DNA from: Neoasaia chiangmaiensis
Lineage (GTDB): Bacteria; Pseudomonadota; Alphaproteobacteria; Acetobacterales; Acetobacteraceae
Direction: 5' to 3'
Length of the DNA: 64,000 nucleotides
Assembly (NCBI RefSeq): GCF_002005465.1
Contig: NZ_CP014691.1
Span: 3,255,001-3,319,000 of the forward strand
Part shown: in pieces, positions 1,571 through 20,140 of the stretch
Position numbering within the stretch: position 1 is the first letter of the stretch
Layout: every line of letters begins with the position of its first letter
The notes under the pieces: model-generated
The model's database searches: none
What the model was told of the DNA's origin: nothing
Seen by the model: only the letters and a program-made list of their open reading frames with translations
Position numbers and translations under genes: made by a program

Positions 1571-1688
1571 ACAACGCCTCCTCACCACAGCGTGACGGTA
1601 GGCACACACATGCACAGCAGTCATCCACGCAACACACACACACAACCCATCACCAACCTATCCCACCCCCAAAAAGGGTGGTTCAGAA
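1571..1688 (+). other. 23S-5S intergenic spacer
   Basis: This 118-bp spacer lies between 23S and 5S rRNA. It is rich in CA repeats (cacacacac near 1625-1645), and the palindromic stretch around 1670-1682 may be part of the processing stem that flanks 5S rRNA. No gene is visible in it. Confidence 0.7.
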
Positions 1689-1806: not shown

Positions 1807-1832
1807 CCCTGAACTACCCACACAATCACCAA

Positions 1833-3545
<1,713 letters not shown>

Positions 3546-3558
3546 GACGAGGTATCCC

Positions 3559-3747
3559 TTACGGTCCGGAGCGGCGGCGCTGCTCCTGTTGCTGTGACCG
3601 GAACCAGTCCCGTGCCGCGCGGCGTGCCATGAGGCGGACCAGCGCCACCAGACGCGGGTCGGGAGTGTTGGGGCGCAGGACGAGCCGCAACTCGGGCTCG
3701 GGCGGCCGATACGCCGGGGCAATGGACTGGCAGGGTCTGTCCGTCAT
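3559..3747 (-). CDS. Small basic protein upstream of the serine recombinase
   Basis: This 62-aa Arg/Pro-rich protein starts at the ATG at 3747 and ends 13 bp before the recombinase start, so the two are probably co-transcribed. It is strongly basic at the C-terminus (ARRAARDWFRSQQQEQRRR). I recognise no domain. Position and charge suggest an accessory DNA-binding protein of the recombinase, such as a directionality factor, but that is inference from context. A longer start at 3789 (76 aa) is possible. Upstream, 3748-3941 holds no gene and probably contains their promoter. Confidence 0.5.
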   Translation of the reverse strand: MTDRPCQSIAPAYRPPEPELRLVLRPNTPDPRLVALVRLMARRAARDWFRSQQQEQRRRSGP

Positions 3748-4160: not shown

Positions 4161-4338
4161 GTTCACACTAGGCTATCTTTTTTAGCGGCTTAAGTTCCTA
4201 ATTTGCATAACGAAGCAGTAGTAACGTCGAGCAACAAAGGGGGAGGCGGGCGATGAATACCGAGAAGGCTTTGGCAGCGTCGCTTGTCTTGGCACATGTC
4301 GCACAATCGATGCCAGCGTACTGACTCGTCGGCGAAGG

Positions 4339-7179
4339 ATGTCAAGCACATTTGCAGAATGGACTACACGTCTTGAAGCGCATTTTAAGGCTCTCGCGGA
4401 ACTGCGTCGAGCCCATGGTCTTCCCGTGTTCGCTCTCGAGCATGGACTCGACGAGAATGAACAGCGGAGTCTTGGTAAAAAACTCAATACATCTCTAGCA
4501 AAAGGCGAAAGCACGTCAAAATATTGGCTGTTGTGGGTCGTTTATTCAGCTGAACAAGGTTACGATTATGATGGTGAGGAATTTTGGGAGACTTTTGAAA
4601 GAAGAACTCCTTATTGGACGCGATATTGCGATCGACGGTCACTTAGAGACTGGTTTGTAAAATTCCACCAACGCTTTGACGGGTTCAAGCCAACAGGCCC
4701 ATGGGCTTCATGGTTCTCGATCATCGCGTGGCCGATAACGCATGCGTTATTGCCGCGAGATCTGCAGCTACAACTGGCAAAGGCACTCTATGAGTGGCGC
4801 TATGCATTGGCTGCGCGGATCGACTCACCTCCTGCAGAACTAGGTCGCTTTCTCGCGACGGTGAGCGACGAGGCGAGTTCGCGCTTTCGTAATTTCCTCC
4901 AACAGGAGGAGGTCGCAGGTAGGATCGTGTTTGCGCTGCTCGGAGGTAGAAACGAAGCCGTCGAACATTTCATCCATTCCAGTACGCTCGACCGAATCGT
5001 CACCGACCTCCAAAAAGCTGCCAGCGGAAGGGCATGGTTACACGACGCGCGAAAAGTCGTTGAACGCGCGCGCTTTCATGGAACATCATCTGTAAATCAG
5101 ACAACCAATATGGCTGATGTCTATCGCAGGGACACTGGAACTCATGAGCAAAGGCCAGAAATCCGGCCGGCGTTGACGCTACGGCGAGTATCGGCTCATG
5201 AGTGGAGGCCGGTCATGGAGTTGCCCTCGTTGAGACCCATTGCCGAGATCAACTCAGACCTGAATAAGTTCCTTCGGCAAACCCGTTGTCAGGTTGCTGG
5301 TTCATTAGGCGCCCTGCCGGCGGGCTGGTTACTGCAGGGCGACCAGAGGCGTGTCCTGACCAGTTGGCCTTCACCGAACAACCCCGTGGTCAAATTCGAC
5401 CGCGAGCAGCCAGTTTTGGAGCACCTTCTGCGCGTCGACGGGTGTATAACTTCAGGTCTGGCATGGCTTTTTCGGGTTGGATCGGACGGTCTTGCGCGCG
5501 AGATTATCAGTCGTGTTGTTCGCCCCGGGGGCCGATACATCTATGTTTCGTCCGAGCAAATTGCAGCCCCATCTTTTGGTGAGGAGATCAGTCTGACCGC
5601 TAGCGGCGTGACCGGACTGGCGCTCGATCTCCCAAACGTCCTTGCGTCAGTGGAGATTGATGCGCTGAGGGCGTTGCATCTTAGCGTCTCCAAGAATGTG
5701 AGGCTCGTGCCCGTTGGCCTCGGTGCGAGGCGGTGGGACGGCGAAGGTTTTGCAGAATGGATGGATGGCGAGACACCCTGCGTGTCACTCCTTGCCGATT
5801 TTGGGGTCGATAGTTACTGCGTAAAGCTCGACGCAGAATTCGTGCATGTCGACGTCAATGGGCGATCTGATCCAATATTACTCAGATTCTCAGATTTGAG
5901 CCTAGGTCTCCATTCTCTGACAGTCGAGGTCCGCCCAAGCGACAAGACCAGCCCGGTGATTTCGGGCCTTCTTCAGATATCGATGCGGCATGCTCGACCG
6001 TGGATAGCTGGCACTTCCGCGCATATCGGCTTGGTCACGACCATCGAGCCCGAAGAGCCGAGCCTAGATCGCCTCTGGGAGGGGGACGTGAAATTGCAGG
6101 TCTTCGGACCCGCCGACCACCATGTTCGCGTGAGCGTAGATTTGCTCGATGCTGCTGGCGCGAAGCTCGGCAGTGAATTTATTGCCGACCTGCCATTGCC
6201 GGTGACAGCCGAACGCTGGGAGCGCGCGCTTTCAATCTTTCTCTCAAAGGAGACAGATCCCTGGGCATTCCTGCGCGCCACTTCGGGGCGCCTCGTTGTC
6301 GAAGGCGATCAACTGGGCGTTCGTCAGATCAGTCTCCAGCGCGAAGTCGCTCCCGTCCGCTGGGTGTGGCACAAGACAGGGCACGGCACGACCTTGCGGC
6401 TGGTTGACGACCATGAAAGCAATGATCTGCCAGAACTGAGTTTCTATCCCTTCTCCCATCCGGCCCGGCTTGAGCCCATCAGTCTCGAACTCGCGACCGA
6501 GGGCTTCCTACCTGAGAATGAGGGAGGCCTCTGCGTCGTCTCATATGGGGAGATCCAGCAGGCCCTGATCGTGAGTATGCCGACTGTCGTCGGAGGCTTC
6601 CGTGGGCTGCTCGTTCAGCCGAGTTTGGCGAACCTTCTACCTTATTCGATGTCGATGATGCCGCGCATTGCTAGCCTCATAGAGATTTGGTCCACGGCTA
6701 AGCTCGTAGGCCCACTCGCGGGAAATCGACGTGACAGGGCTGTAACCGCGCTTCGAGGCGTCTTGTGTGAGTTCGTGTGTGGGAGAGACTGGATCGACGC
6801 TGAGAATGAGTATGCCAGTTCGCCGAAAGGTGTGTCCAATCTGAAGCGCTTCGCTGGCGCGACCGGGGCACCAGCCGCCTTTAATTTCGTTCTGGCCCGC
6901 GACGTCGCTCGGTTTCAAATGATCCCGCCCACTGAACGCACGAAGGATCTCATCGACCTAGCCCAACGTTACAAAATTGCTTCGCGTGAGGCCTGTTCTG
7001 ATGCGCTCCAAGTTGCGTCCTGGCTGGAGCAGGGCGACCGATGGTCGGAGGCGATCGCTGAACGTATCACCTCTTCCAAAGACGCTGCGAGCCTGACGCG
7101 AGCCGCTCGCTTTATCACTACAGCGACGTCATTACCGTTCGAAGGGCAACCGACGGTGCCACAGGTAACTCGCCGATGA
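4339..7179 (+). CDS. Large protein of unknown function, first gene of a Druantia-like operon
   Basis: This 946-aa soluble protein opens a tight four-gene operon; it overlaps the next gene by 4 bp (ATGA). No catalytic motif is visible. The N-terminal 200 residues are rich in Trp, Phe and Tyr (YWLLWVVYSAEQGYDYDGEE, residues 63-82, then WFVKFHQRFDGFKP and GPWASWFSIIAWPITHALL) and remind me of the STY4851/ECs_5259 family found in enterobacterial defence islands. The middle and C-terminal parts look beta-rich. Position directly upstream of a DruE-like helicase is like DruH of Druantia type III, but I cannot show homology. The start is uncertain: a GGCGAAGG stretch abuts the ATG with no spacer. The protein is probably a structural or target-recognition partner of the helicase. 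Confidence 0.75.
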   Translation: MSSTFAEWTTRLEAHFKALAELRRAHGLPVFALEHGLDENEQRSLGKKLNTSLAKGESTSKYWLLWVVYSAEQGYDYDGEEFWETFERRTPYWTRYCDRRSLRDWFVKFHQRFDGFKPTGPWASWFSIIAWPITHALLPRDLQLQLAKALYEWRYALAARIDSPPAELGRFLATVSDEASSRFRNFLQQEEVAGRIVFALLGGRNEAVEHFIHSSTLDRIVTDLQKAASGRAWLHDARKVVERARFHGTSSVNQTTNMADVYRRDTGTHEQRPEIRPALTLRRVSAHEWRPVMELPSLRPIAEINSDLNKFLRQTRCQVAGSLGALPAGWLLQGDQRRVLTSWPSPNNPVVKFDREQPVLEHLLRVDGCITSGLAWLFRVGSDGLAREIISRVVRPGGRYIYVSSEQIAAPSFGEEISLTASGVTGLALDLPNVLASVEIDALRALHLSVSKNVRLVPVGLGARRWDGEGFAEWMDGETPCVSLLADFGVDSYCVKLDAEFVHVDVNGRSDPILLRFSDLSLGLHSLTVEVRPSDKTSPVISGLLQISMRHARPWIAGTSAHIGLVTTIEPEEPSLDRLWEGDVKLQVFGPADHHVRVSVDLLDAAGAKLGSEFIADLPLPVTAERWERALSIFLSKETDPWAFLRATSGRLVVEGDQLGVRQISLQREVAPVRWVWHKTGHGTTLRLVDDHESNDLPELSFYPFSHPARLEPISLELATEGFLPENEGGLCVVSYGEIQQALIVSMPTVVGGFRGLLVQPSLANLLPYSMSMMPRIASLIEIWSTAKLVGPLAGNRRDRAVTALRGVLCEFVCGRDWIDAENEYASSPKGVSNLKRFAGATGAPAAFNFVLARDVARFQMIPPTERTKDLIDLAQRYKIASREACSDALQVASWLEQGDRWSEAIAERITSSKDAASLTRAARFITTATSLPFEGQPTVPQVTRR

Positions 7180-8243
7180 TCGAGATCGTGAACGTGGATG
7201 AGATCATCGCCTCCGCGCGCCGTGATCTCGGGCTTCCCGTCGGGAGCGAGGTGGACAGCGCCTATTGGTTCGCCGGCTTGCGGCGCCTCGCCGGGCAATT
7301 GTGCCCGTGCTCGCCACGCACCCTCGTTTCGTCGATGGGGGGCAGTCATCGCGTCTTTGCGCTCGACGTGCCCGATCTAGTCGGCCACCTTGAGGATTGC
7401 GTGGACGCGCTCGTTGCCGTTGGTGATTTGCTCGAGTTCCACGACGTGACAACGCTGGACGAGAAAGTGAAGGCGACATGGGTCTTCGCCGCGCCGCCCT
7501 CATTCGTCATGCATCCGTCGGGTGCGGCTTACATATTGGGACTAGCGCCTGACGACGCGCTTCCTCTGCCGATTGCATGGAGGGAGCGCGTGGTCTCGAG
7601 GGGCCCTGTCCGGGTGCTCGAGCCTCTGCCTGGTGAAGATCTCGACGCATCGCTCAAGAGCATCGGCTTTCGATCCTTGTCTCTTAATGCATGGATGCGG
7701 AGCCCTAGGCTGGAGAGCGCGGCCTCCCTCATCGCCGGGCTTGACGCCAAGCTGGCAGCGCTGGGTCCGGCCGGCCACGTTCCAGATCTGAAGGTTTTCG
7801 ACGGGGCAAAGGACACGCGTAGCTACCGGGCACGGTGGGTCGCCCCATCGGGGCAGGACGGCAATTACATCGTCCGTCGCCCGCAGGCCTATGGAGCGGA
7901 CCTTTGGGGTTATGCGCGCCTCGAACGGGGTGAACTTACGAAACTCGTCGACTTTCCTGTCCCCGGATCCCGGTATCGGGGGTGCGACATGGCATGGCGC
8001 GTCCAACTTGCGATCGACGCTTTGTTAAAGAAGCCACAGCGATACCGGATCGTGCCATTGGACGGGGCCAAGCGCTTCGACCTGTTCTTCCCATTGCCGG
8101 ATTGGGCACGGCGGCGTCTCTCGACGATCGGGCAGGAAGTGGCTCCCGACAAATGTCTGATGTCGTTCTGTCTTCCGCTTGATTCTGTGAGAGCGGAACA
8201 GGCCTTCCTAAAAGAATATCTTTTTCTCGAATGTGAAGAGTAA
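7176..8243 (+). CDS. Unknown protein, second gene of the Druantia-like operon
   Basis: This 355-aa protein begins in the ATGA overlap with the 946-aa gene and ends 12 bp before the helicase gene, so all three should be translated together. I recognise no family. The sequence looks globular, with no membrane segment or signal peptide. It has a helical N-terminal part (SAYWFAGLRRLAGQL), a beta-rich middle (KATWVFAAPPSFVMHPSG) and a C-terminal DLFFPLPDWARRRL stretch. No nuclease or NTPase motif is visible. Coupled translation with the helicase suggests it works in the same complex, perhaps as an adaptor. That role is inference from context alone. Confidence 0.75.
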   Translation: MIEIVNVDEIIASARRDLGLPVGSEVDSAYWFAGLRRLAGQLCPCSPRTLVSSMGGSHRVFALDVPDLVGHLEDCVDALVAVGDLLEFHDVTTLDEKVKATWVFAAPPSFVMHPSGAAYILGLAPDDALPLPIAWRERVVSRGPVRVLEPLPGEDLDASLKSIGFRSLSLNAWMRSPRLESAASLIAGLDAKLAALGPAGHVPDLKVFDGAKDTRSYRARWVAPSGQDGNYIVRRPQAYGADLWGYARLERGELTKLVDFPVPGSRYRGCDMAWRVQLAIDALLKKPQRYRIVPLDGAKRFDLFFPLPDWARRRLSTIGQEVAPDKCLMSFCLPLDSVRAEQAFLKEYLFLECEE

Positions 8244-8255
8244 GGACTGAATTGT

Positions 8256-11200
8256 ATGGCTGCGACGATACAAGAGACGATTGAACAACTGCACACTTCA
8301 CTCAGGGATTATATCGAGGCAACCTACCATATCGGCGACGCGACACTTATCAGCCAACGCCAAACACTACTGAAGAGGACCGGCGTTACTCACCAGATCC
8401 CTTACCTCGAATCTACGCCCAAATATCAACTCGGCCAGAATTTCGCAAAGATCGAGGGTCTGCCTCCCGCGGCCCTTGCAGTGTATTCGGCGTTGGCGAA
8501 GACTGATGGCAAGCAGCCAAGACTGCTCTTCGACCCGCCTTATCGGCACCAGGCGGATGCTATCAAGCATTCGCTGATCGGCGGGCAGAACCTCGTCATC
8601 ATGACCGGCACCGGCTCGGGCAAGACGGAATCGTTCCTCCTGCCGATCCTCGGGAAGTTCGCCCGCGAGGCGGCGACGAATCCCAAGGCTTTCGGCAGCC
8701 AACACGGTGTCCGGGCGCTGCTGCTCTATCCGATGAATGCGCTCGTGAATGACCAGCTTGGCCGTTTGAGGGCCATTTTCGGCGATCCCCGCTTGGCGGC
8801 GGCGTTCACCGAATGGGCAGGCAGACCACCGACGTTCGCGCGCTACACCAGCCGTACGCCCTATGCTGGTGTCCGCACCAGTAAGCGCGACAGTAAGAAG
8901 TTCATGTCGTTTGAGAGCTTCTATGTTGAGATCGAGCGTCAGGCGTCGGGTCCAGAATCAGAGGATCAGCAACGCGCGTCGAAGCTTCGCAGCGAACTGA
9001 AGGCGCGCGGAAAATGGCCGGCGAAGCCCGACCTCGAAAAATGGTTCGGGGCGAAGGGATCGAAGTGGGCGGACCCGAAGACTGGCGAACCGTTGCGGGC
9101 AGTCACCCTACCAGAGGATTCCGAACTGATTACGCGGCATGAGGCGCAGCATGCCGCGCCGGATATGCTGGTCACCAACTATTCGATGCTGGAATATATG
9201 CTGATGCGTCCGATCGAGCGGACCATCTTCGATCAGACGAGCGCTTGGCTCGCTGCGAACCCGGACGAGAAATTCACGGTTGTCCTCGACGAGGCCCACC
9301 TCTACCGGGGCGCTGCTGGTGCGGAAGTCGGATTGCTGATGCGGCGGCTGCGCGCGCGGCTCGGTATCTCAGTCGAGCGGTTCCAAGTGATCTGCGCCAC
9401 AGCGAGCTTCAACGAGAAGGAGCATGCGGGCGACTTCGGATCGCAGTTGACCGGGGTTGATGCAGACAGCTTCGTGGCGGTCACCGGCGACCTCGATCTG
9501 CGGCCGCACGCGGCCACGGGAAGTAAAGCGGACGCAGATTTGCTGGCAGGGGTCGATCTGGCAGGCTTCTATGACTCCGACGAGGACAAGCGGCGAGCGG
9601 CCATCGCTCCAGTCCTCCAGCATTGTGGCATTACGCCGACCGGAGATATCGGCCCCGATCTGTATGCGGCCCTCGAGACCTTTCCGCCGCTCGGCCTATT
9701 GGTGAACAAGACGATGAAGGCCCCGCGTCCGGTGGCCGGCCTCGGCTCCGAGCTTTTCCCGGATACGCCCGATCAGGCGGACCGCGCTGTGACGACGCTG
9801 CTGGCGCTCGGAAGTGTCGCCCGGGAAAATCCGGAAGCTGCCGGTCTGCTACCCTGCCGTATCCACAATTTCTATCGGGGCTTGCCCGGCCTCTGGATAT
9901 GCATGGATCCCGATTGCACCGAACTCGGCGCCGACGAGCATTCAGGAATCTGCGGCAAAATGTATAGCCAGCCCCGCGAGATATGTGGTTGCGGCGCCCG
10001 CGTGCTCCAATTCTACACCTGTCGGAATTGCGGCGCAGCCCATGCGCGCGCCCATTCTGATGACGTCGACACGCCGAACGCTTTGTGGTCAGAGCCGGGG
10101 CGGCGTCTGAAGATGCCGGGAATGGAGACCTCGCCGCTCCTCGATCTTGATCTCCTGCTGGAAGAACCTCGGCATCCGGATCTCGCGGAGATAGCGGAAT
10201 ATGATCTCGAGACGGGCCGGATAAACCCGCTCAATCAGAGTCCGCGGACCCGTACCGTGTATCTGCGTAAGGATCGCGTCACCCCGTCATTCGACGATGA
10301 GGGAAATCAGGACAGTCGGTTGGAGGTGCGCGGCCAGTTCACACCCTGTGCGGTTTGTGGCGATACGGCTGCCTTTGGGCGAACCTCGGTTCAGGATCAC
10401 CAGACCAAGGGGGATCAGCCTTTCCAGGCCCTGGTCGCACGCCAGATTCAGGTCCAGCCACCTGGGCCGCAGCCGGCATCGAGCTTTGCGCCGCTGCGTG
10501 GACGCAAGGTACTGGTATTCAGCGATTCCCGTCAGGTTGCCGCCCGCCTCGCGCCGAACCTCCAACTCTATTCGGTGCGCGATGCGCTTCGAACGCTGAT
10601 CGTATGGGGCTTCGACCGGCTTCGTCAGCACCCGATGATCACATCGATGCTCAGCCTCGATGATCTATATTTCGCCGCGCTCCTTGCGTCCAAGGGCCTC
10701 GGTGTCCGGCTCCGACCCGAGATCAAGGTGGGGGAGAACTTTGCCGCCGAAGCCGCGATCGAAGCCGGTGTTCAGGCCGGCGCGCTCGATGATCCGACCC
10801 AGTTCATGATGCTCTGGATGAAGAACAGGGGCGATCGTCCGCCGGAGGGCTTGCTCGACGATATCGTCAAGACCGTCAGGGACCGTCATCTCGGACTCGA
10901 AGCGCTCGCGCTCGCCTCGCTGTGCGAGAGTGTCGACAAGGCGGCGGCGGTTCATGCGTTGCCGGCAATCCCGGGAATTGCGGATACCAACGAAGACAAG
11001 ATCGCACTGGCTCGTGCCTGGCTGCGATGCTGGAGGCCGAAGGCCTTCTGGCTGAACGCCATGCCGAACACCTGGTACAAGCGCGGTGGCGGAAGCGGGA
11101 CCAGCGTGCGATCGCAAAAGGGCTCGTTCAAGGCGATGCGCCGCGTGCTCCCCGACAAGACCGCTTACTCGCTCTTCGACAAGCAATGGCAGCCTGCCCT

Positions 11201-13799
11201 GATGCAGATCTTTGCCGAAGAGATGGAAAGCGGGTTCAAGCGCCTCGCTGGCAAGAACCTCTCGCTGCTCATGGATGGCGAGTGGGTGCGCTGCGGCGCA
11301 TGCCGTTCGGTTCACCGACCCGTGCCGAAGCTGCCGCATTGCCTCGATTGCGGCAGCAGGGAGATCGTCTCCCTCGATCCCGCTACGGACCCTGTCTTCG
11401 TCGCACGCAAAGGCTATTATCGGGCACCCGTCATAGCGGCGCTCCATGATCCCGAGCACAGGCCGATGGCATTGATCGCGGCCGAACATACGGCGCAGCT
11501 AAACGCGCCGCAGAGCGAAGACGTCTTTTCACGCGCGGAGGAAAATGAGCTTCTCTTCCAGGACGTGGCGCTCGATTGGGGCGCGGCGGCGAACCGCTCG
11601 ACTGCGATCGATATCCTTTCGAGCACGACCACGATGGAGGTCGGCATCGACATTGGCGCGCTCTCTGGCGTGGCGCTTCGCAACATGCCTCCTGGTCGCG
11701 CGAACTACCAGCAGCGTGCTGGTCGTGCCGGCCGCCGGGGCAACGCGGTCGCGACCGTGGTGGCCTTCGGAAGCGCCGATAGCCATGACGAGCATTACTT
11801 CAGCGACCCCGAGGCGATGATCGCAGGGCCGGTGGTCGACCCCCAACTCACCCTCAACAACCCCGACATTGTGCGTCGCCATGTCCGGGCTTATCTGCTC
11901 CAGCGCTATCACCAAGATCGGATTCCGGGGTTCGATCCCGACGTCGATCCCAACTTGTTTTCGGTATTGGGCACCGTCACCGGATTCCAATCGGGAGATG
12001 AAGTCCTCAACCGCGCCGATTTCGAAGCGTGGCTGAAGAAGAATGCCAAGTCGCTCCGGGACTCCGTCGCCGACTGGATTCCAATTCAGTTGTCGCCGGA
12101 GGATCGGCAGGAATTGCTCGATGATATGGCGGCCGACTGCCTGAAAGCGATCGATGACGCCCTCAAGGGCAAGGTGCTGGGCGGCGAGAAGGTCTTCGAG
12201 GAGCCTGACGGGGAAGGCGTCGAGGTTCAGGAAGAGGAAGGCGAAGAAGTTCCGCCCGAGAAGGCACAGACTGGCAAATTGCTGGACCGGCTGCTGTATA
12301 GTGGCGTGCTGCCGCGCTACGCATTTCCAACCGATGTGGCGCCGTTCAATGTGTTCGACATCGACCGATCGACGGACTTCCGCCCGGTGATGAAATTTGC
12401 CCCGTCGCAGTCTCTGCCGGTCGCGCTGTCGCAATATGCGCCTGGCAAGACGGTTTGGATCTCGGGCAAGTGCTATACGTCAGGAGCGATCTATTCGCCG
12501 ATGTGGGAGGACCGTGTCGAGGCGTGGCAAAATCGCCGCCTCTATCGCGAATGCTCCGAATGCCATTTCGCGCAGACGGTGCCGCTCGACGAGGGCCTCA
12601 AACCCGGCGTGATTGACAACTGTCACGCTTGCGGCGGCGAAAGCACGTTCGGACCGACGCAATATTGGCTGCGTCCGCCAGGCTTTGCCCATCCCGTCTA
12701 TGTGGACGAGATGACCTCGCCCGACGACATGCCCGAAACGGCTCACGCGACGCGGGCGAAGTTGACGATGCCAACCCCGGCCGACACTGAGAAGTGGATC
12801 GCGATTAACGACCGGATCCGTGGCATGCCCGATCGCAAGCATCTGCTGGTGTCCAACACCGGGCCGAAGCAGAAGGGCTATAATTACTGCACGAAATGTG
12901 GTGTGATCGAGGCCAGTGCCGAGAGCACGGCGATGCTCGGCGGGCCTCACAGGAAACCCTATCCCGACGAGAAGGAACCGATGTGCGAAGGCGCGGGCAC
13001 GACCCGGCACCTTGTTCTCGGCACGGACTTCATCACAGATATTGCATTGTTCTCGCTGCGCGTGGCGGCGCCGCTCAAGCTGAAGCCCGGCTTCTATCCG
13101 ACGGATGTCGCGCTGCGGACGGTGAGCGAGGCGATCGCCAAGGCCGCCTCATCGATGCTCGAGATCGAGCCCGGTGAACTCATGGCGGAATATCGACCGG
13201 CGTTGACGCCAGCGGGAATAAGCGGGCTCGAGGCGGAAATCTTTCTCTACGACACCCTCCCCGGCGGCGCCGGCTTTTCAGGCCAGTTGGCCCACCGCGG
13301 CGAAGAGTTATTCCAACGCGCGCTTACCCTGATGAAGACATGCCCGGAGAATTGCGATACATCGTGCTATCGTTGCCTGCGTAGCTTCAAGAACAAGTTC
13401 GAGCATGGGTTGCTCGATCGGCATGTCGGCGCGGAACTGCTCGCATATCTGATCAGCGGCGAGATGCAGCCCTTCGACACTCGCCGAATCAAGGCCTCGA
13501 CCGTCCTGCTCCACCAGGATCTCGAGCGCCAGGCTGACGGTGTCCGGTTCGGCCTCGATATCGACGTCGATGTACCGGGGATGGGGCCGGTGACGATCCC
13601 GATCCTCGCCAAGCGCTCGGATGGTCGGCGGTTTGCGATCGCGCTTGCCGGCGGATTGACCGGTGACCATCCGGCCGATCCAAGGATTGTGGAGATGCGT
13701 GAGAGGTGGCCGGATCTCCTCGTCATTCCGGTAAACGAACTGCTGGTCAGGGGCAACTTGCCGGCGGCATCGCGCTCTGTTCTTTCCGCGATCGCCTGA
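8256..13799 (+). CDS. DruE-like superfamily 2 helicase with DUF1998 domain
   Basis: This 1847-aa protein has a DEAD/DEAH helicase split over a long protein. Walker A (TGTGSGKTES) is near residue 117, motif Ia includes LLLYPMNALVNDQLGRL, the DEAH box (VVLDEAHLYRGAAGAE) is near 345, and lobe 2 has MEVGIDIGAL and the arginine-finger motif QQRAGRAGRRG near 1151. Cysteine clusters that could bind zinc lie between the lobes (CGCGAR...CRNCGAAH, CGACRS...CLDCGS) and after lobe 2. The C-terminus (about 1655-1725) is a DUF1998 domain (YDTLPGGAGFSGQL, then C...C..C). This size and domain order match DruE of Druantia, the gene shared by all described types. DISARM DrmB also has DUF1998 but is shorter and has other partners. 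An RBS (taagga) lies 9 nt upstream. Confidence 0.88.
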   Translation: MAATIQETIEQLHTSLRDYIEATYHIGDATLISQRQTLLKRTGVTHQIPYLESTPKYQLGQNFAKIEGLPPAALAVYSALAKTDGKQPRLLFDPPYRHQADAIKHSLIGGQNLVIMTGTGSGKTESFLLPILGKFAREAATNPKAFGSQHGVRALLLYPMNALVNDQLGRLRAIFGDPRLAAAFTEWAGRPPTFARYTSRTPYAGVRTSKRDSKKFMSFESFYVEIERQASGPESEDQQRASKLRSELKARGKWPAKPDLEKWFGAKGSKWADPKTGEPLRAVTLPEDSELITRHEAQHAAPDMLVTNYSMLEYMLMRPIERTIFDQTSAWLAANPDEKFTVVLDEAHLYRGAAGAEVGLLMRRLRARLGISVERFQVICATASFNEKEHAGDFGSQLTGVDADSFVAVTGDLDLRPHAATGSKADADLLAGVDLAGFYDSDEDKRRAAIAPVLQHCGITPTGDIGPDLYAALETFPPLGLLVNKTMKAPRPVAGLGSELFPDTPDQADRAVTTLLALGSVARENPEAAGLLPCRIHNFYRGLPGLWICMDPDCTELGADEHSGICGKMYSQPREICGCGARVLQFYTCRNCGAAHARAHSDDVDTPNALWSEPGRRLKMPGMETSPLLDLDLLLEEPRHPDLAEIAEYDLETGRINPLNQSPRTRTVYLRKDRVTPSFDDEGNQDSRLEVRGQFTPCAVCGDTAAFGRTSVQDHQTKGDQPFQALVARQIQVQPPGPQPASSFAPLRGRKVLVFSDSRQVAARLAPNLQLYSVRDALRTLIVWGFDRLRQHPMITSMLSLDDLYFAALLASKGLGVRLRPEIKVGENFAAEAAIEAGVQAGALDDPTQFMMLWMKNRGDRPPEGLLDDIVKTVRDRHLGLEALALASLCESVDKAAAVHALPAIPGIADTNEDKIALARAWLRCWRPKAFWLNAMPNTWYKRGGGSGTSVRSQKGSFKAMRRVLPDKTAYSLFDKQWQPALMQIFAEEMESGFKRLAGKNLSLLMDGEWVRCGACRSVHRPVPKLPHCLDCGSREIVSLDPATDPVFVARKGYYRAPVIAALHDPEHRPMALIAAEHTAQLNAPQSEDVFSRAEENELLFQDVALDWGAAANRSTAIDILSSTTTMEVGIDIGALSGVALRNMPPGRANYQQRAGRAGRRGNAVATVVAFGSADSHDEHYFSDPEAMIAGPVVDPQLTLNNPDIVRRHVRAYLLQRYHQDRIPGFDPDVDPNLFSVLGTVTGFQSGDEVLNRADFEAWLKKNAKSLRDSVADWIPIQLSPEDRQELLDDMAADCLKAIDDALKGKVLGGEKVFEEPDGEGVEVQEEEGEEVPPEKAQTGKLLDRLLYSGVLPRYAFPTDVAPFNVFDIDRSTDFRPVMKFAPSQSLPVALSQYAPGKTVWISGKCYTSGAIYSPMWEDRVEAWQNRRLYRECSECHFAQTVPLDEGLKPGVIDNCHACGGESTFGPTQYWLRPPGFAHPVYVDEMTSPDDMPETAHATRAKLTMPTPADTEKWIAINDRIRGMPDRKHLLVSNTGPKQKGYNYCTKCGVIEASAESTAMLGGPHRKPYPDEKEPMCEGAGTTRHLVLGTDFITDIALFSLRVAAPLKLKPGFYPTDVALRTVSEAIAKAASSMLEIEPGELMAEYRPALTPAGISGLEAEIFLYDTLPGGAGFSGQLAHRGEELFQRALTLMKTCPENCDTSCYRCLRSFKNKFEHGLLDRHVGAELLAYLISGEMQPFDTRRIKASTVLLHQDLERQADGVRFGLDIDVDVPGMGPVTIPILAKRSDGRRFAIALAGGLTGDHPADPRIVEMRERWPDLLVIPVNELLVRGNLPAASRSVLSAIA

Positions 13800-13817
13800 A
13801 ACGGTAGGATGTAGCCC

Positions 13818-15803
13818 ATGATCGAGATTTTGGGTGTTAACAGCGGCCAAGAGTATGAGGCCGCTGTTCACTTGCGCAAGCAGATACTGAAGCTGTGGCC
13901 CGACCTCGCACAGAGCAAGGACGATATCGTCAAGATATTCGTCGGGTTCAAAATGTATGGATATAAATTCCAGGATATCGACATCATCGTCGTCGGCAGC
14001 TTCGCGACGCCGAGATCGTTCGATGCCGAGATGAAATTCTATCCTTCTGAGGGGGAGCCATTCATTCCGAAAGGCGCGTCTATTCGGAACTTTGCCCTAC
14101 TGATCGAGGAGAAATCCCATAACGCTCTCGGTGTTCGATTTGAGGGCAGAACCGCCACTGTTAAATACAGAAACAAAAAAGACGGGGAGTGCGTCACCGA
14201 GAAGGCGTTCAAACAGATGTTCGAGTTCAAGAAATATCTGCGCGATCGGAATGGCGGGAACATTTTCGTTCAGGAACTAGTGCTTTTTTCGGGGCTGAAG
14301 GAAGCACAACTTCCGCCAAGACCTCATAATTTCATCGCGAGCGACACGAGTTTCGAGAGGCTTCTGAACACGTTGGGGCAAACCTCCAGTCCTGTCAGAT
14401 CCGGCCCTTTCGCCAATCTGAACTTCGGAGCAACGGAAGTCTTCCGAAAGATATTGGACCCAAACTTTGCGCTTTTCGACGTCCTCGAACCGACGCCTCT
14501 CGATCGGAAGCGCATGGACCTAATCGCGAAACAGGCGCTGCCGGACGATTGGGTCGAGGACATGGGTGAAAAGCAGATACTGCTGAAGGGGCGCGGTGGC
14601 GTCGGCAAGACCGTTATCCTCTTGCAGATGGCGTATCGAGCCTACCAGTTCGAAGAGAAGCGTTCACTGGTCCTGACCTTCAACAAGGCGCTCGTCGCGG
14701 ACCTCCGTCGATCGATGGCCCTTCTCGGTGTGCCCCGTGCTGTGGAGACTGGGGGCATCGGTATTGAAACGGCGCACGGGTTCTTTGGCCGCCTCATGAT
14801 GGCCCTCGGCATCATCGAAGGCTACGCCGACTTCCTCGAGCGCTATGGCGAGCACAAGCAAGCGTTGCTCGCTTATCTCGATTCAGGTGCAGTCAGCCGC
14901 GATGATATAGACAAGCTTATTCGCGATCAGGCTGATCAGTTCGGCTGGGACAATGTGCTCGTCGACGAGGGGCAGGACTGGCCGTCGGACGAGATTGCAA
15001 TTCTGCGGAAGATCTATGGCTTGGAAAGCCTGGTCATCTCCGACGGTGTCGATCAGTTAGTTCGCGGGACTGTGGCCGACTGGAGTACCGGTGTCGGCAA
15101 GGCGTTATTGCGCAAGCGACGGCTGACGCGCTGCATGCGGATGAAAGCTAATTTGGCGGCGTTCGTGTCCGATATGGCGACAAATCTCGGGATTGATGAT
15201 TGGGTTCTGGAGCCGAACACGGATGCCGCTGGCGGCCGTATCATCATCGTCGATGGCGACCTGAGTTCACAACCGGAGCGTTTGAAGGAATGGTGCGACG
15301 AGGCAGAGGCGCTGAAGAACGCGCCGGTCGATCTTCTGGCCTGCGTGCCCCCATCATTGGTCGGCACGGTCCGCGACTGCCTGTGCAAGCCTGCTAGAGA
15401 ATTCGTTTCCCTGGGGCACCGCGTCTGGGACGGTACGAGCCGCGACGTACGGGAGCATTTCGCGACGAGCCGTGACCAGTTGAGATTCGTCCAGTACGAT
15501 TCATGCCGCGGCCTCGAAGGTTGGACTGTTATCAATTACGGCTTGGACGAACTCTGGGATTATAAGTATGCCCAGTGGGTCAACGAAGGCCATCAGGTCG
15601 ATGACCTTTATACCTCTGTCGAGGATCTCGCCAAACTGCATGCGTCTCGATGGGTGATGATTCCCCTGACGCGCGCGATTGATACGCTCGTCATTAACAT
15701 CGGAGCCCAACAGAGCTTCGTACGCGATGCCCTGTTGAAGGTGGCAAAGGCACGGCCCGATATCATCGATTGGATCGGCTTCGAAGACGCTGCAGCGTTC
15801 TGA
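13818..15803 (+). CDS. NERD-like nuclease fused to UvrD-like helicase
   Basis: This 661-aa protein starts 18 bp after the helicase gene. Its first 170 residues look like a nuclease-related (NERD) domain: an early Gly-Glu helix (GQEYEAAVHL), then FQDIDIIVVGSF and a later Glu-x-Lys (IEEKSHN). A superfamily 1 helicase follows, with Walker A GRGGVGKTV near 260, Ia-like LVLTFNKALV, Walker B VLVDEGQDWPSDE near 382 and a UvrD-like C-terminal half with PLTRAIDTLVI. Such proteins are common in defence islands and resemble DUF2075/UvrD-like anti-phage helicases. It ends 17 bp before the convergent DruA-like gene. The tight spacing with the DUF1998 helicase suggests two motors and one nuclease acting on foreign DNA. 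Confidence 0.82.
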   Translation: MIEILGVNSGQEYEAAVHLRKQILKLWPDLAQSKDDIVKIFVGFKMYGYKFQDIDIIVVGSFATPRSFDAEMKFYPSEGEPFIPKGASIRNFALLIEEKSHNALGVRFEGRTATVKYRNKKDGECVTEKAFKQMFEFKKYLRDRNGGNIFVQELVLFSGLKEAQLPPRPHNFIASDTSFERLLNTLGQTSSPVRSGPFANLNFGATEVFRKILDPNFALFDVLEPTPLDRKRMDLIAKQALPDDWVEDMGEKQILLKGRGGVGKTVILLQMAYRAYQFEEKRSLVLTFNKALVADLRRSMALLGVPRAVETGGIGIETAHGFFGRLMMALGIIEGYADFLERYGEHKQALLAYLDSGAVSRDDIDKLIRDQADQFGWDNVLVDEGQDWPSDEIAILRKIYGLESLVISDGVDQLVRGTVADWSTGVGKALLRKRRLTRCMRMKANLAAFVSDMATNLGIDDWVLEPNTDAAGGRIIIVDGDLSSQPERLKEWCDEAEALKNAPVDLLACVPPSLVGTVRDCLCKPAREFVSLGHRVWDGTSRDVREHFATSRDQLRFVQYDSCRGLEGWTVINYGLDELWDYKYAQWVNEGHQVDDLYTSVEDLAKLHASRWVMIPLTRAIDTLVINIGAQQSFVRDALLKVAKARPDIIDWIGFEDAAAF

Positions 15804-15820
15804 TGTGGTTTTAGCCGGTA

Positions 15821-17749
15821 TCAGGTCGGAAGCAGAGACGGATCCGACCCCGGCGAGATCAATGTCGCATGGACGCTTTGTGGACCAAGCTTTCTGATAG
15901 CGGCGAGGGTTTCCGAGCGTTTGGATCGCTGCAGCAGCCAGCGACGGCGCCACGCGGCGCCTATCGACGCTGCGTTGGAAAGCAATGGTGGTTCGGAGTG
16001 CATCCCGAGGAGTGCATCGCGCGATGCCGAGCCGAGTTCACACGCGTAAAAGAGCCGTGGGGTAGCGTGGTGTAGAATAGCGTCGCTGTCGATGCCGAGA
16101 GCATCGAGACCTTCTCTAATTTGCCGAAGCCGAGGACTTGTTCCTTCGCCAAAGCGGTTGTTCACGCGTCTGGAGTTGTGACGGGCTTGTGCCATCTGCC
16201 CCAGCGCGTGCGCCGTCTCGTTGCCCAAATGCAGAGTACCGAAACCGCCGGTAAGGCTCTTGCCTATGGCATCCCAATGGACATCGTGGCCCAACTCGTC
16301 GTGATCGCTCGCGCGCAGGAGAAGCCGGTTATATTGGCTCGAACCCACGCCGTAGAGGCTCGTCGTTGTCAGGATTCGGAGGTCGGCAGGTTTGCAGATC
16401 GCGCGGCCTGCCATCTGGGACGCGATGATGCTGACCTGTGAACCGTACCGTTCGGCGTAATAATCGTGGATTTCCCGCGACGCGAGGATGAGGGCGACTA
16501 GTTTTCCGCCGAGCAACTCATTGTAGGGATGGATCGCACCACAGATACTGACGTCAGCAACTTGGCTCGATAGGCCGGCCTTACGAAACTCGGTGAGGAC
16601 GATATCGATCGCACGCTGACCGGTCTTCGCGGCGAGAAGTTGCTCGATCGCGGCGCGCGGATTCTTTGCAAGGCCGGCCGCGCGAAACATTTGCTTAGCG
16701 AATAGAAGTTGCGCCAGAAGTTCCGATCGTTTGCGCACGAAAAGGAGATCTTCCGACGCTGCGCGCCAGTCGGCATCGCCATGTGCGTCTTTTACGTTGC
16801 CGCGCATCGGCCGCACGCTGCCGTCGGCAACTCGGTTGTCCTCATAATGGGCGCGGAGTTGGAGATCACGCGAGTGTGCCGCGCCCGAGGCCTTTTGCTC
16901 CAATCGCAGGATCGTCGTTTCGACGGGTGACCGGATCTCGCTTTTAGACGCTAGGTCGTCCCACCTGAGATTGGCGATCGACGCATCGATCCGCCCCAGA
17001 AAGGCCTTCGCGATATCTTCGGGTACCCATTCGCCGGTGAGGAAGCGCGTCTCCATCGATTCTCGGAGCCAACCGATCCAGCGGTCGCGCGCTGTGACCC
17101 GCATGACGGGGCTCGCAAGCATGGCAATGCCCATGACCGGGCGATTAGGGCGGGCAGCGTTTCGGATCAGCACCAGCAACTGGCGACCAGGGATCGGGCG
17201 ATATTCGTGCGCCCAAGTGTGGCGGAAATAGCGCCAGATATCGTTGAGCGGCAGACCGGTTGCGGAGCAGCGGTCGCCGGCCTTGCAGATCTCGACGACC
17301 GGATCGACGACGTCCGCCAACGCAGCCTCCTGCTGATCGGAGGGAAGTGACGCGATCCGTTGGAACTCGGTGGCGAGGTCGGAGCCGTTGTCAACCACGT
17401 CGAGAACGCAACTACGCACCCCGGCCGCGCGAAGCGTCCGGCGTTCCATGCGCCGGACAAAGGTTTGGACGGAGGGCTCCTGCAGTTGTCTTTGTCGTGC
17501 GGCTTGCAGGGCATGGCGAATGCGACGCTTCACGTCATCGACAGATTGCTCCGATTGCCGCGCGATGCCGGGCGCCTCGAAGAGAATGTGGTCGTCTTCG
17601 ACGGCGACGCGCCAGCCTTGCTCAAAAAGGTCGGCGACGAGGAGGCAGACGGTGCGGAGCTTCCGGCTCTCACCATCATCGATGTAGCGACGCGCCAACG
17701 TGCGCATTTCCTCGGCGAAGGAGGGCTGGGGGGCACCCTCGAAGCTCAT
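15821..17749 (-). CDS. DUF4338 protein, DruA-like
   Basis: This 642-aa protein starts at the ATG at 17749 with a purine-rich RBS upstream; a 32-residue longer ORF reaches 17845. The middle part (about 165-240) has YFRHTWAHEYRPIPGRQLLV followed by VTARDRWIGW, the signature I know from DUF4338. A second conserved block (about 425-510) reads NELLGGKLVALILASREI, AERYGSQVSIIASQMAGR and TTTSLYGVGSSQYNR. DUF4338 defines DruA of Druantia type I and also occurs beside transposons. Its catalytic role is unknown to me. The gene is convergent with the helicase operon and is probably co-transcribed with the GHKL ATPase upstream (198 bp gap). DruA opposite a DruE-like gene, without recognisable DruB-D, is unusual. 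Confidence 0.72.
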   Translation of the reverse strand: MSFEGAPQPSFAEEMRTLARRYIDDGESRKLRTVCLLVADLFEQGWRVAVEDDHILFEAPGIARQSEQSVDDVKRRIRHALQAARQRQLQEPSVQTFVRRMERRTLRAAGVRSCVLDVVDNGSDLATEFQRIASLPSDQQEAALADVVDPVVEICKAGDRCSATGLPLNDIWRYFRHTWAHEYRPIPGRQLLVLIRNAARPNRPVMGIAMLASPVMRVTARDRWIGWLRESMETRFLTGEWVPEDIAKAFLGRIDASIANLRWDDLASKSEIRSPVETTILRLEQKASGAAHSRDLQLRAHYEDNRVADGSVRPMRGNVKDAHGDADWRAASEDLLFVRKRSELLAQLLFAKQMFRAAGLAKNPRAAIEQLLAAKTGQRAIDIVLTEFRKAGLSSQVADVSICGAIHPYNELLGGKLVALILASREIHDYYAERYGSQVSIIASQMAGRAICKPADLRILTTTSLYGVGSSQYNRLLLRASDHDELGHDVHWDAIGKSLTGGFGTLHLGNETAHALGQMAQARHNSRRVNNRFGEGTSPRLRQIREGLDALGIDSDAILHHATPRLFYACELGSASRDALLGMHSEPPLLSNAASIGAAWRRRWLLQRSKRSETLAAIRKLGPQSVHATLISPGSDPSLLPT

Positions 17750-17947
17750 GAGGCTGCGAAACTCTTTCTTCTGAGTGCCGCGTAGGAAAGGGGACACGGT
17801 TCGCACTTGACCCGGACCCGACCGCAACCTCCTTTCCGACATCAATCATAACCCCCTTTTCAACACCGTTATCCTGTGTGTGTTTATGCCAAAAATTGCC
17901 CCGAAATTCCAGTGCGATCAGGCGCGAAAACTGGCAGCAGGCCAGTT

Positions 17948-19546
17948 TCAATATGTCTCGGAAGCAAGAATGTCTGTGATCGACGATAAGCCTGGATCGA
18001 GCGACCGTCCCCAATCCGTAAGGATTTCGACAACAATCCTGCGACGGATGTCGGTATCGTCCCGTCGCCCATTAGTGATAGCCGATAAAAGAGCCTCCAG
18101 CGCAGTTTGAAGAGTGATCGGGTTAGGTCGGCCGCCATGCGCGAAGACCGGATGATCTGTGTTGAGGCTAAGTGATCCATTGCTAGCACGGAAGAGGAGA
18201 AGAGGGCGGTGGCCTTTTTCCCGAGCGGATGAAGTCGTCTTTGATCTGGCGATTGATTCTTGCTTGTCGCGGGCTACGGCCTTAGGAAAGGCGCAAACTG
18301 TGTTCTTCAGGGTGCGTGCGGTCTTCAACGATCTCACTCGACCGCGAAGTTGCTCGATCGCTTTGACAAGCCCGGCTTCCTGGAGCCGATCCCACATTTC
18401 CGGTGACACGGAAATTTGTTGCTTTGCAGTAGTGACGCCGAATAACTCGTCTAGGGACGCCGGGAACTCCACCTCGATCCGGATATACCGGTCATTGTTG
18501 ATAAAGGTGGTCCAGGGGGTTTTGGTCTTGCAATCGATAAGGCGGCCATTTCGACTGAAGATGATGCCGTGATAGTCTTTTAGGATCGGAAATCTCTCAT
18601 TGGCGTTGAGCCCGACGGCATCTCTGCTTTTGTCGATCGATGCGAAGCTCGGCGGTAGGTACGAATAGCGGAGGAGAATCCGCGCTGGCCCAGTAGGCAT
18701 GTTTACTATTAGAGACACGGGTTCGAGCGCGATGGCTCGGTCGTTATCAATCCGGCAGAGGGTGTGGCTCGGATCGAGGAATAGTGGATCGGTCGGCGAG
18801 ACGGGATTTCCATTAATAAATATCAATGTCGATATTAGCAGTTTATGATATGTAACGCCGAAGCATTGATCTAAATGCTTTGCAAAGCCAAGTGTCGTCG
18901 TCCAGTCAAGACGATCGAGTTTCTCGATAAGAATAATGGTCCCTGATTCCCAACCGTCTAGATATAGAAGGTTGATATAGTTAGACAGAAACTGGGGAAT
19001 CTCTGCGTCGCACGGTAACGGAATAACTGTGTCGCCCTCATTGTCTGTGTATTTACCATTGTTCAGATCATCGAGGTCAAGTGTGACTTGTTTGGCTGAT
19101 CTACCAGCGACTTTGGATATGACGGTGAAGCGCTTTCCGATACTCATGGTCGAACACGGCAATCCGTAGCCGTAGCGACCTAGCCCGGATCGATCATTTT
19201 CACGATGAGTTCCGCCCCACATCATAGCTAATTGGATCATGTCCGGCGTCATGCCGTGCCCATCGTCGAGAACAGCGATCTGGGTCGGCTTCTTTTGAGA
19301 GTCTGTACCGTCGTAGCCGAAGACGATGTCGACATGCTCTGCATATGCCTGGATGGCGTTGTCGACGAGTTCTGCGATCGCTTCGACGTTACTTCGATAT
19401 CCAAGATGGCGAATGCCGCGAACAAATGCATCTGGCACAGTAAGTCCTAACTTTCTGGCTTTATGCTTTTGTATGGAATATTGAGCCTGTGCCGAGATAT
19501 CGGCGGTCGCGCGTTTCGTTGCACTTCGACGTGAATTCAGGCGCAT
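17948..19546 (-). CDS. MORC/Hsp90-like GHKL ATPase
   Basis: This 532-aa protein has a GHKL (Hsp90, MutL, histidine kinase) ATP-binding domain in its first 250 residues. The N box ELVDNAIQAY starts near residue 59, the G1 box DDGHGM is at 94-99 and the G2 glycine lid GLGRYGYGLP is at 121-130. No histidine-kinase phosphoacceptor or receiver domain is visible, so it is not a two-component sensor. Iyer, Abhiman and Aravind (2008) described prokaryotic MORC-like GHKL ATPases next to restriction and helicase genes, which fits here. Such proteins act as ATP-driven clamps. It starts at the ATG at 19546 with cgaaagagg upstream and is transcribed towards the DruA-like gene. It is probably a component of the same defence cassette. 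Confidence 0.83.
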   Translation of the reverse strand: MRLNSRRSATKRATADISAQAQYSIQKHKARKLGLTVPDAFVRGIRHLGYRSNVEAIAELVDNAIQAYAEHVDIVFGYDGTDSQKKPTQIAVLDDGHGMTPDMIQLAMMWGGTHRENDRSGLGRYGYGLPCSTMSIGKRFTVISKVAGRSAKQVTLDLDDLNNGKYTDNEGDTVIPLPCDAEIPQFLSNYINLLYLDGWESGTIILIEKLDRLDWTTTLGFAKHLDQCFGVTYHKLLISTLIFINGNPVSPTDPLFLDPSHTLCRIDNDRAIALEPVSLIVNMPTGPARILLRYSYLPPSFASIDKSRDAVGLNANERFPILKDYHGIIFSRNGRLIDCKTKTPWTTFINNDRYIRIEVEFPASLDELFGVTTAKQQISVSPEMWDRLQEAGLVKAIEQLRGRVRSLKTARTLKNTVCAFPKAVARDKQESIARSKTTSSAREKGHRPLLLFRASNGSLSLNTDHPVFAHGGRPNPITLQTALEALLSAITNGRRDDTDIRRRIVVEILTDWGRSLDPGLSSITDILASETY

Positions 19547-19689
19547 AGGGGCCTCTTTCGATTGCTTGTTACTGCTCCGGTAGGCCTTGTGAGTTTGACG
19601 ATCTGCTTGGAATCTGAACAGACTGACCGATCATGTTCACTCCTTCTTTTTCTCGTTTCGACTGTAGGGCCGAATCTAGTTCCGTGGCC

Positions 19690-19960
19690 GGTTCGTTGCT
19701 CCCTCTTCAAAACCATTTTGTCGGGTGAAGACTCTCTGACAGGGAAGCAACTCCTGTGTAATCATTGATCGGGCCAACTGTCATGAAGAAGTTGAGCGGA
19801 CGTCTGTTTCTGTCCATGACTGGATGCAGTTTCGTATTTATGCCGCCTTTGGTACAGCCAATCAGTCACTGTAGATTTTTTACTCGAAGGCTCAAAGCCT
19901 TGCGGTGTGCCTTGAAAATAGGTCGTATTAATCACGACGGTCGATGATCTGGAGCTGTGA
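19690..19960 (-). pseudogene. IS5-family transposase remnant (copy 1)
   Basis: On the - strand a short reading frame gives CTKGGINTKLHPVMDRNRRP followed by LNFFMTVGPINDYTG. This is the conserved DDE-transposase core of IS5-type elements common in acetic acid bacteria (KGG-N-T-K-LHAV-D--GRP). Neither end of the gene nor clear terminal repeats can be seen. The same segment recurs in the remnant at 62377 (DRNGCPLDFFMTAGQISDY), so the same or a sister IS once flanked this element on both sides. The stretch 19547-19689 holds no gene. Confidence 0.75.
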
Positions 19961-20140
19961 TTTTTCGAAAGCTAGCCCAGCAAAGGAAGAAAAAGCTAAT
20001 GGCTCCGCCCTCGCGCCGGCAAGGGTTCGCGTCAGCGAGTTGACGCCGCCCGATGGGGTGTCCCCGATCTTCCTGCGCTGCGCTGCGCTCCGTGCAGACC
20101 GGGCGATACCCCTCCCCATCGGTCGCTCTTGCCGTTGCTA

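What the first reader, a model, noticed from the sequence alone, without database searches (positions are those of the whole stretch)
4339..19546. Druantia-like defence island with a gene set unlike the described types
A DruE-like DUF1998 helicase is in one tight operon with a 946-aa protein, a 355-aa protein and a NERD-like nuclease/UvrD-like helicase, and converges on a DUF4338 (DruA-like) gene and a MORC-like GHKL ATPase. As I know the sets (I: A-B-C-D-E; II: M-F-G-E; III: H-E), none combines DruE and DruA with a GHKL ATPase and a second helicase-nuclease. The two transcription units meet with 17 bp between the stops and are boxed by an integrase on one side and an IS remnant on the other, as expected of one cassette.
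Basis: partly seen in the sequence, partly recalled or inferred. Interest (0 to 1): 0.8.

Follow-up and report, generated by a model that had tools for sequence, protein, structure and literature searches.

The report
Druantia variant with MORC ATPase cassette
This bacterial genome carries a six-gene variant of the known anti-phage system Druantia type I, in which a swappable pair (a MORC-type ATPase and an enlarged DruA protein) and a swappable nuclease are plugged onto a shared helicase core, giving a testable clue to what these parts do.

Summary
The six genes are real and at the stated coordinates. DruB and DruC are absent; an unrelated 946-aa protein with Ig-like folds stands in their place. 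The set recurs. Of 43 loci with the 946-aa protein and DruE, 21 carry a long DruA and all 21 have the GHKL/MORC ATPase; 21 carry a short DruA and none has it; one is cut by a contig end. A viral contig has all six genes co-directional. Long DruA is short DruA plus a ~157-aa helical insert; in the loci read and scanned it lies beside, or is fused to, an ATPase (GHKL or SspF-like). GHKL and DruA form changed together at least four times on the DruE tree, and the pair has moved as a unit. A nuclease gene often follows DruE: here NERD-SF1 helicase, elsewhere Cas4-like or DUF4365. The pair also occurs where no DruE was found. Mechanism is inferred. Known kind, new variant.

The parts
4339..7179 (+). 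946-aa protein ('p946'): helical N-terminal region, Ig-like middle, helical C-terminus; in the place of DruB and DruC; no Pfam, NCBIfam or PADLOC match
   Evidence: found with DruE in 42 further loci; unrelated to DruB and DruC by hhalign; AlphaFold model pLDDT 85.5, pTM 0.44; Ig/FnIII-like match at 453-553, Z 9.1, rmsd 2.4, 86 aligned
7176..8243 (+). DruD (type I), 355 aa
   Evidence: PADLOC DruD1 8.7e-169; family hhalign to canonical DruD 99.4% probability
8256..13799 (+). DruE (type I), 1847 aa, YprA-family SF2 helicase; few conserved polar residues at the C-terminal end
   Evidence: PADLOC DruE1, 2045 bits; Pfam DEAD, Helicase_C, MZB; C-terminal conservation
13818..15803 (+). 661-aa protein: NERD-like PD-(D/E)xK nuclease joined to a UvrD-like SF1 helicase
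   Evidence: NERD+UvrD 2.2e-7; invariant D53, D55, E97, K99, Walker A, DEGQD and TRA motifs in 4 homologues
15821..17845 (-). DruA, long form, 674 aa (ATG at 17842 is a likelier start than TTG at 17845); GNAT-like core with a helical insert at residues 264-420
   Evidence: PADLOC DruA1 1063.7 bits; Pfam DruA; insert mapped against 29 short DruA; fold
17948..19546 (-). GHKL/MORC-type ATPase, 532 aa
   Evidence: HATPase_c_3 4.2e-21; MORC2 2.9e-13 for the family profile; conserved ATP-site motifs
4337..19582 (.). extent of the gene set as a transferred block
   Evidence: blastn against L017: 4337-17933 at 85% and 18310-19582 at 78%; outside it the two flanks differ or match other, rearranged parts of the window
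1866..3722 (-). 618-aa serine recombinase, left neighbour; outside the block shared with L017 and not counted as part of the system
   Evidence: Resolvase, Recombinase, Zn_ribbon_recom; CcrB-like, far under the cut-off

Best explanation
A variant of Druantia type I built from exchangeable modules. SHOWN: a core of p946, DruD and DruE; a DruA slot filled either by short DruA alone or by long DruA plus a GHKL/MORC ATPase; and an optional nuclease slot after DruE. INFERRED: p946 with DruD recognises infection or scaffolds DruE. DruE loads on and unwinds ssDNA-containing phage replication DNA. The NERD-SF1 helicase protein cuts in trans, since DruE's own C-terminal nuclease looks dead. The MORC ATPase closes as an ATP-driven dimer clamp on DNA and gates long DruA, whose ~157-aa helical insert is the predicted docking site. 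Short DruA lacks the insert and works without an ATPase.
For: Type I core. Replacement of DruB and DruC. Recurrence and the 21/21 against 0/21 split. At least four switches forced by starred branches of the DruE tree, DruA form and GHKL changing together in 4 of 4 independent pairs. All six window genes co-directional on L119. GHKL, long DruA, p946, DruD, DruE and a nuclease gene co-directional in L023, L025, L094. Cassette exchange: the window's GHKL and DruA trees put it with Paracoccus L103, whose DruE is only 36-45% identical, and L119 has a window-like core (DruE 73%) but a GHKL-DruA pair 85-88% identical to that of L108. Insert and ATPase partner. Alternative genes after DruE. Type I DruE carries an inactivated Vsr domain according to PMC12458937 (passage), in keeping.
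Against: No experiment. The DruE tree is a quick one with long branches flagged, L032 (one of the 21) among them. With four independent switches the sign test cannot go below p = 0.125. The excess of nuclease genes with long DruA (20 of 21 against 6 of 21) does not survive correction for kinship (on average 1.5 pairs for, 0.5 against). The GHKL-DruA pair also occurs where no DruE was found (Roseivivax plasmid record, G492; none near it on L116, L117), so it may have a life of its own. p946 as sensor: against L017 all six genes and five p946 segments are under purifying selection (omega 0.05-0.20) and the Ig-like segment is the most conserved of the five; against L018 the N-terminal segment is the most and the C-terminal one the least conserved. 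The fold matches have middling Z.
Confidence: 0.6

Rival explanations
1. Two independent systems sit side by side: a Druantia core on the + strand and a separate GHKL-DruA system on the - strand that merely meet in a defence island.
For: Convergent layout in the window. Roseivivax plasmid L104 keeps the GHKL-DruA part but lacks the ~15.5-kb DruE part that Leisingera L105 carries at the same place, with no DruE in that plasmid record. G492 has long DruA beside a divergent 359-aa GHKL-like protein (91 bits) but no DruE. Viral contigs L116 and L117 have the pair with no DruE in the roughly 10 kb held on each side.
Against: In 42 of 43 core loci exactly one DruA form is present, long replacing short (the 43rd ends near a contig edge). 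GHKL, long DruA and the core are co-directional in L023, L025, L094 and L119. DruA is itself a Druantia component.
Confidence: 0.2
2. Ordinary Druantia type I: the extra genes are neutral passengers and annotation as type I says all there is.
For: Three of six proteins match PADLOC type I profiles strongly, including a 675-aa DruA1 profile, so long DruA is already catalogued.
Against: DruB and DruC are absent and p946 is unrelated to them. The GHKL gene goes with one DruA form in 21 of 21 against 0 of 21 loci and changed with it in 4 of 4 independent pairs.
Confidence: 0.15
3. A modification-dependent restriction system: the GNAT-like DruA acylates DNA (as phage Mu Mom modifies adenine; recalled, not tested) and the helicase-nuclease part attacks DNA lacking the mark, MORC bridging sites as proposed for MORC-containing restriction systems.
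For: GNAT-like fold of DruA and the published reading of DUF4338 as a GNAT domain (PMC10853773, one passage). Published link of bacterial MORC genes to restriction systems with SF2 helicases (PMC2292703, passages).
Against: Nothing named Mom is among the rows shown (capped lists, so weak evidence); catalytic competence untested. In 15 of 21 short-DruA loci no nuclease gene of the profiled kinds follows DruE.
Confidence: 0.1

Closest known systems
Druantia type I (druABCDE; the set is recalled, and the order is seen in L066, L068, L069, L072, L077, L080)
   Same: DruE1, DruD1 and DruA1 all present; D directly before E
   Different: No DruB or DruC; unrelated 946-aa protein instead; long DruA with insert; added MORC-type ATPase and nuclease-helicase gene
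Druantia type III (DruH-DruE; PMC13192584 and PMC13316683, passages)
   Same: DruE with a large partner that has helical ends and Ig-like domains (DruH as described; p946)
   Different: p946 gave no PADLOC match; DruE here is type I; more genes. Likeness of design only
MORC/paraMORC restriction operons (PMC2292703, passages) and MZA MzaB
   Same: GHKL ATPase beside an SF2 helicase and a nuclease
   Different: Helicase here is DruE of the YprA family; MzaB score 72 bits against a cut-off of 850
DndFGH / SspFGH
   Same: SspF-like ATPases beside or fused to long DruA in other loci; DUF4338 fused to DndF in print
A related arrangement (Paracoccus L103, Leisingera L105, G193 in L108/L114)
   Same: GHKL, long DruA, DruE, NERD-UvrD and a p946-like gene in one locus; a weakly DruD-like gene (15-28 bits) in L103 and L105
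   Different: DruE ~2050-2090 aa, 33-45% identical in L103 and L105; order E, NERD-UvrD, D; a helicase of SNF2 type paired with p946

Membership tests
Druantia type I | DruE of the type I branch | tested here: met
   PADLOC DruE1 2045 bits over 2-1845; next best DruE2 613 bits
Druantia type I | DruD | tested here: met
   PADLOC DruD1 559.5 bits
Druantia type I | DruA (DUF4338) | tested here: met
   PADLOC DruA1 1063.7 bits, Pfam DruA 1.7e-32
Druantia type I | DruB and DruC | tested here: not met
   none of the six proteins matched the DruB1/DruC1 profiles that find both in L072; hhalign of p946 against DruB 0.6% and DruC 0.1% probability. Hence filed as a variant, not a standard member
Druantia type I | protection against phages | not testable with these tools
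   no experiment
MORC family | GHKL ATP-site motifs | tested here: met
   E59, D62-N63, D94-x-G96-x-G98-M99, G123-R124-x-G126-x-G128-L129-P130 in 90% or more of 19 rows, one of them (L047) cut short; MORC2 best PDB relative
MORC family | S5 domain after the GHKL domain | tested here: inconclusive
   K375-Q376 invariant; no S5 match by profile; not folded
MZA system (MzaB) | MzaB above NCBIfam cut-off | tested here: not met
   72.2 bits against 850
GNAT acyltransferase fold (DruA) | GNAT-like core | tested here: inconclusive
   the 50 VIA rows shown are mostly acetyl- or acyltransferases by title, besides FemX and malonyl-CoA decarboxylase; best Z 8.8, rmsd 4.6, 167 aligned; Foldseek itself best E 1.8. 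Supported in print (one passage)
Druantia type III | DruH partner | tested here: inconclusive
   946-aa protein matched no PADLOC family at E 0.01; whether the library holds a DruH profile was not checked

The most novel reading that the evidence does not exclude
Long DruA is a general ATPase-gated form of DruA. Its ~157-aa helical insert is a docking port for an interchangeable ATPase switch, a MORC-type GHKL clamp or an SspF/DndF-like ATPase, that licenses a GNAT-type activity on DNA or on the DruE complex. MORC proteins would then be DNA-topology clamps that gate a helicase-nuclease immune effector in bacteria, a parallel to eukaryotic MORC silencing of foreign DNA.
Probability: 0.3. Interest if true: 0.8.

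Novelty: new variant of a known kind. Interest (0 to 1): 0.56.

Why it matters
Druantia type I is a catalogued defence system, yet the passages seen here do not say what DruA, DruB, DruC or DruD do. Natural swaps (DruB+DruC against p946; short DruA against long DruA plus MORC; different nuclease-type genes after DruE) show which parts are interchangeable and give a division of labour that can be tested by simple part exchange. The tie between one inserted domain and the presence of an ATPase (21 of 21 against 0 of 21) is a specific prediction of a protein contact, and it puts a bacterial MORC into a defined immune context.

Tried and rejected
Considered and dropped: that p946 is a fused DruB-DruC (hhalign probabilities 0.6% and 0.1%; no PADLOC match); that the GHKL is MzaB (72 bits against 850); that the tRNA-Met at 1833-1909 is the element's attachment site (no stretch of 14 bases or more of it recurs on the + strand of the window; the other strand and sites outside the window were not searched); that the Ig-like segment of p946 shows an arms-race signature (the opposite against L017); that nuclease genes depend on long DruA (no support after kinship). 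No solved relative by sequence for long DruA up to E 1 or p661 up to E 0.1; for p946 the best was E 0.043. No match of the long DruA in 50,697 phage records. Literature: no paper holding both 'Druantia' and 'GHKL ATPase' or 'Druantia' and 'DruK'. Of 19 papers with two of Druantia, MORC, HATPase, DUF4365 and Cas4-like, 15 were listed and none of these 15 holds Druantia. Papers opened: PMC12458937 (abstract, passages, section 5), PMC8565338, PMC13192584, PMC13316683, PMC10853773, PMC2292703 (passages only); others were seen as listings. The original description of Druantia (Doron 2018) and supplements were not read.

Of 83 loci examined (window, L011, L012 and the 80), 43 had p946 and DruE above 1300 bits. 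Left out were L012 (DruE broken by an IS), L082 (fragment), L021, L030, L035, L046 (short contigs or contig ends), L070 (DruE lacks its start and no p946 although 9.8 kb is held upstream), and loci of other DruE branches. L048's 621-aa DruA ORF was counted as short (best match short DruA). For the nuclease count L034 and L040 were set by hand (only L034 was scanned), and that DUF4365 is a nuclease is recalled. Six plasmid records with long DruA were not opened (H48, H49, H50, H52, H53, H55).
Full report
OBSERVATION. The recombinase on the left is a 618-aa serine recombinase; the IS remnant on the right is a short degraded piece (family recalled). Against Sphingobium sp. C100 (L017) the collinear similarity starts at 4337 and ends at 19582, so the six genes travel as a block.

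WHAT IT IS. A genome scan with a DruE alignment gave 80 loci with flanks of up to 10 kb (best 80 of 563). Gene calling and iterated profiles show that close relatives of this DruE sit in a core p946-DruD-DruE. The ABCDE order (DruB1, DruC1 and DruD1 confirmed in L072) belongs to a more distant DruE branch (L072 DruE 34% identical). p946 is unrelated to DruB and DruC by profile comparison, while the DruD and DruA families do match theirs (99.4% and 100%).

THE DruA SLOT. In 43 core loci, 21 have long DruA and every one of these has the GHKL gene; 21 have short DruA and none has it; one (L026) ends near the core. The DruE tree needs at least four switches between the forms on starred branches, and DruA form and GHKL changed together in all four independent pairs. 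Near-copies inflate the raw 21 of 21; four events is the honest number, its sign test stops at p = 0.125, and the tree is a quick one with long rows flagged (L032 among them). Named hosts of the long form span Pseudomonadota, Thermodesulfobacteriota, Acidobacteriota, Gemmatimonadota and Actinomycetota. Orientation varies: convergent as in the window in 17 of 21, upstream and co-directional in L023, L025 and L094, upstream on the other strand in L032.

CASSETTE EXCHANGE. The window's DruA and GHKL group with Paracoccus L103 (66% and 59% identity), whose DruE is only 36-45% identical, whereas the window's DruE groups with L017 and L018 inside a branch of otherwise short-DruA loci. A viral contig (L118/L119, 92 kb) carries all six window genes co-directionally. 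Its core is close to the window's (DruE 73%, p661 62%, p946 47%), but its GHKL and DruA are only 32% and 35% identical to the window's and 88% and 85% identical to those of L108, a locus with a ~2057-aa DruE. So the same set was assembled with a different GHKL-DruA pair, the pair moving together.

THE INSERT. Long DruA differs from short DruA mainly by residues 264-420, a helical insert (helices in the model), besides three short stretches (4-16, 38-60, 158-175). The rest of the model matches enzymes of GNAT type: most of the 50 VIA rows shown are acetyl- or acyltransferases by title, others FemX and malonyl-CoA decarboxylase; best Z 8.8, rmsd 4.6, 167 aligned. These Z-scores are middling and Foldseek alone found nothing significant (best E 1.8), but one published sentence reads DUF4338 as a GNAT domain fused to DndF (PMC10853773, passage). 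In other loci long DruA stands beside SspF-like ATPases (L076, L096, L106, L015) or is fused to one (L107, L109, L113). In the long-DruA loci that I read and scanned there is thus an ATPase partner, GHKL or SspF-like; in L111 it is a divergent 359-aa GHKL-like protein (91 bits). Not settled: L112 (cut by the contig end), L091 (neighbours not scanned), and six plasmid records not opened.

THE NUCLEASE SLOT. Directly after DruE, 14 loci share a ~410-aa gene with PDDEXK_1 (8e-21 in L031) and, in 12 aligned rows, four invariant cysteines and invariant D201, D214, K216, a Cas4/AddB-like nuclease; it matches PADLOC DruK weakly (46 and 55 bits). The window, L017, L018, L055, L061 (there split), L119 and L120 have the NERD-SF1 gene there instead, and L034 a DUF4365 gene. 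Such a gene is present in 20 of 21 long and 6 of 21 short loci, but this is not significant after kinship. A published survey reports an inactivated Vsr domain in type I DruE (PMC12458937, passage); after residue 1725 only two polar residues, R1744 and D1755, are conserved in 90% of the rows, in keeping with that.

P946. The model has a helical N-terminal region, beta-rich domains and a helical C-terminus (pLDDT 85.5 but pTM 0.44, so the domain arrangement is unsure); the clearest match is a single FnIII/Ig-like domain at 453-553 (Z 9.1, rmsd 2.4, 86 aligned). DruH of type III was described with helical ends and three Ig-like domains and proposed as sensor (PMC13192584, passages). This suggests p946 works like DruH; it is not evidence of kinship. 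Against it: p946 diverges fast, but under purifying selection; its Ig-like segment is the most conserved of five against L017, and against L018 the C-terminal segment, not the Ig-like one, is the least conserved.

HOW IT LIKELY WORKS. Recognition by p946/DruD, DNA engagement by DruE, cutting in trans by the nuclease gene, and licensing by DruA, gated in this variant by a MORC clamp. Only the gene content, the swaps and the motifs are shown; every step of action is inferred, partly from type III work (PMC13192584, PMC13316683, passages).

COUNTER-EVIDENCE ON ONE SYSTEM. With long DruA as bait in 395 genomes of the order and 398 of the phylum (own genome in both) eight genomes had it. Four have GHKL beside it; DruE is present in three of these (window, G193 in the same locus, G291 23 kb away on the same contig) and not found in G492. 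Of the other four, G020 has DruE with an SspF-like partner; G259, G426 and G460 have none. Roseivivax THAF30 keeps the pair but lacks the DruE part that Leisingera has at the same place. The pair can therefore exist without DruE beside it.

NOVELTY. Known kind, new variant. Long DruA is already in PADLOC as DruA1. In the papers searched and passages seen, the tie of GHKL to long DruA, the p946 replacement and the nuclease swaps were not found (supplements and Doron 2018 not read).

Noticed in passing
window 22687-34048: Conjugative-element genes to the right of the cassette: SLT transglycosylase (22687-23406), relaxase with DUF3363 (23522-25339), T4SS coupling protein (27421-29421), TrbE/VirB4-like ATPase (31607-34048).
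   Followed up: partly
window 25351-26319 -: A 322-aa protein with an Abi_C (abortive infection C-terminus) domain lies among the conjugation genes, a possible further defence gene.
   Followed up: no
window 19944-20888 and 55345-56229: Two DNA methyltransferase genes of the same Pfam family (N6_N4_Mtase), one beside the cassette and one near a replication initiator (RPA, 57125-58357).
   Followed up: no
window 48889-53250 -: A 1453-aa protein with no Pfam family above cut-off (weak HEAT) in a lower-GC stretch, 46-54 kb.
   Followed up: no
window 300-3545: The recombinase block is 76-80% identical to blocks on large replicons of Shinella, Paracoccus, Novosphingobium and others (the eight best rows), so it looks like a widespread unit of its own.
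   Followed up: partly
L103, L105, L108, L014, L062: p946-like proteins lie next to a helicase of SNF2 type in several loci, and in Azospirillum L014 opposite DUF1998 and NERD/helicase genes: a wider family of helicase partners.
   Followed up: partly
L050:1075-4209 and L050:5986-8892: Mycobacterium sp. E2733 has two p946 paralogues in one locus, and its DruE is split in two frames.
   Followed up: no
L105:13581-17863 and L117:6516-9838: Two GHKL genes in a row before long DruA (also in L104), which may point to a heterodimeric ATPase.
   Followed up: no
L057, L058, L073 (Myxococcota/Deltaproteobacteria): A gene related to the 410-aa nuclease family overlaps the end of DruE by four bases in a distinct DruE branch with other partners.
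   Followed up: no
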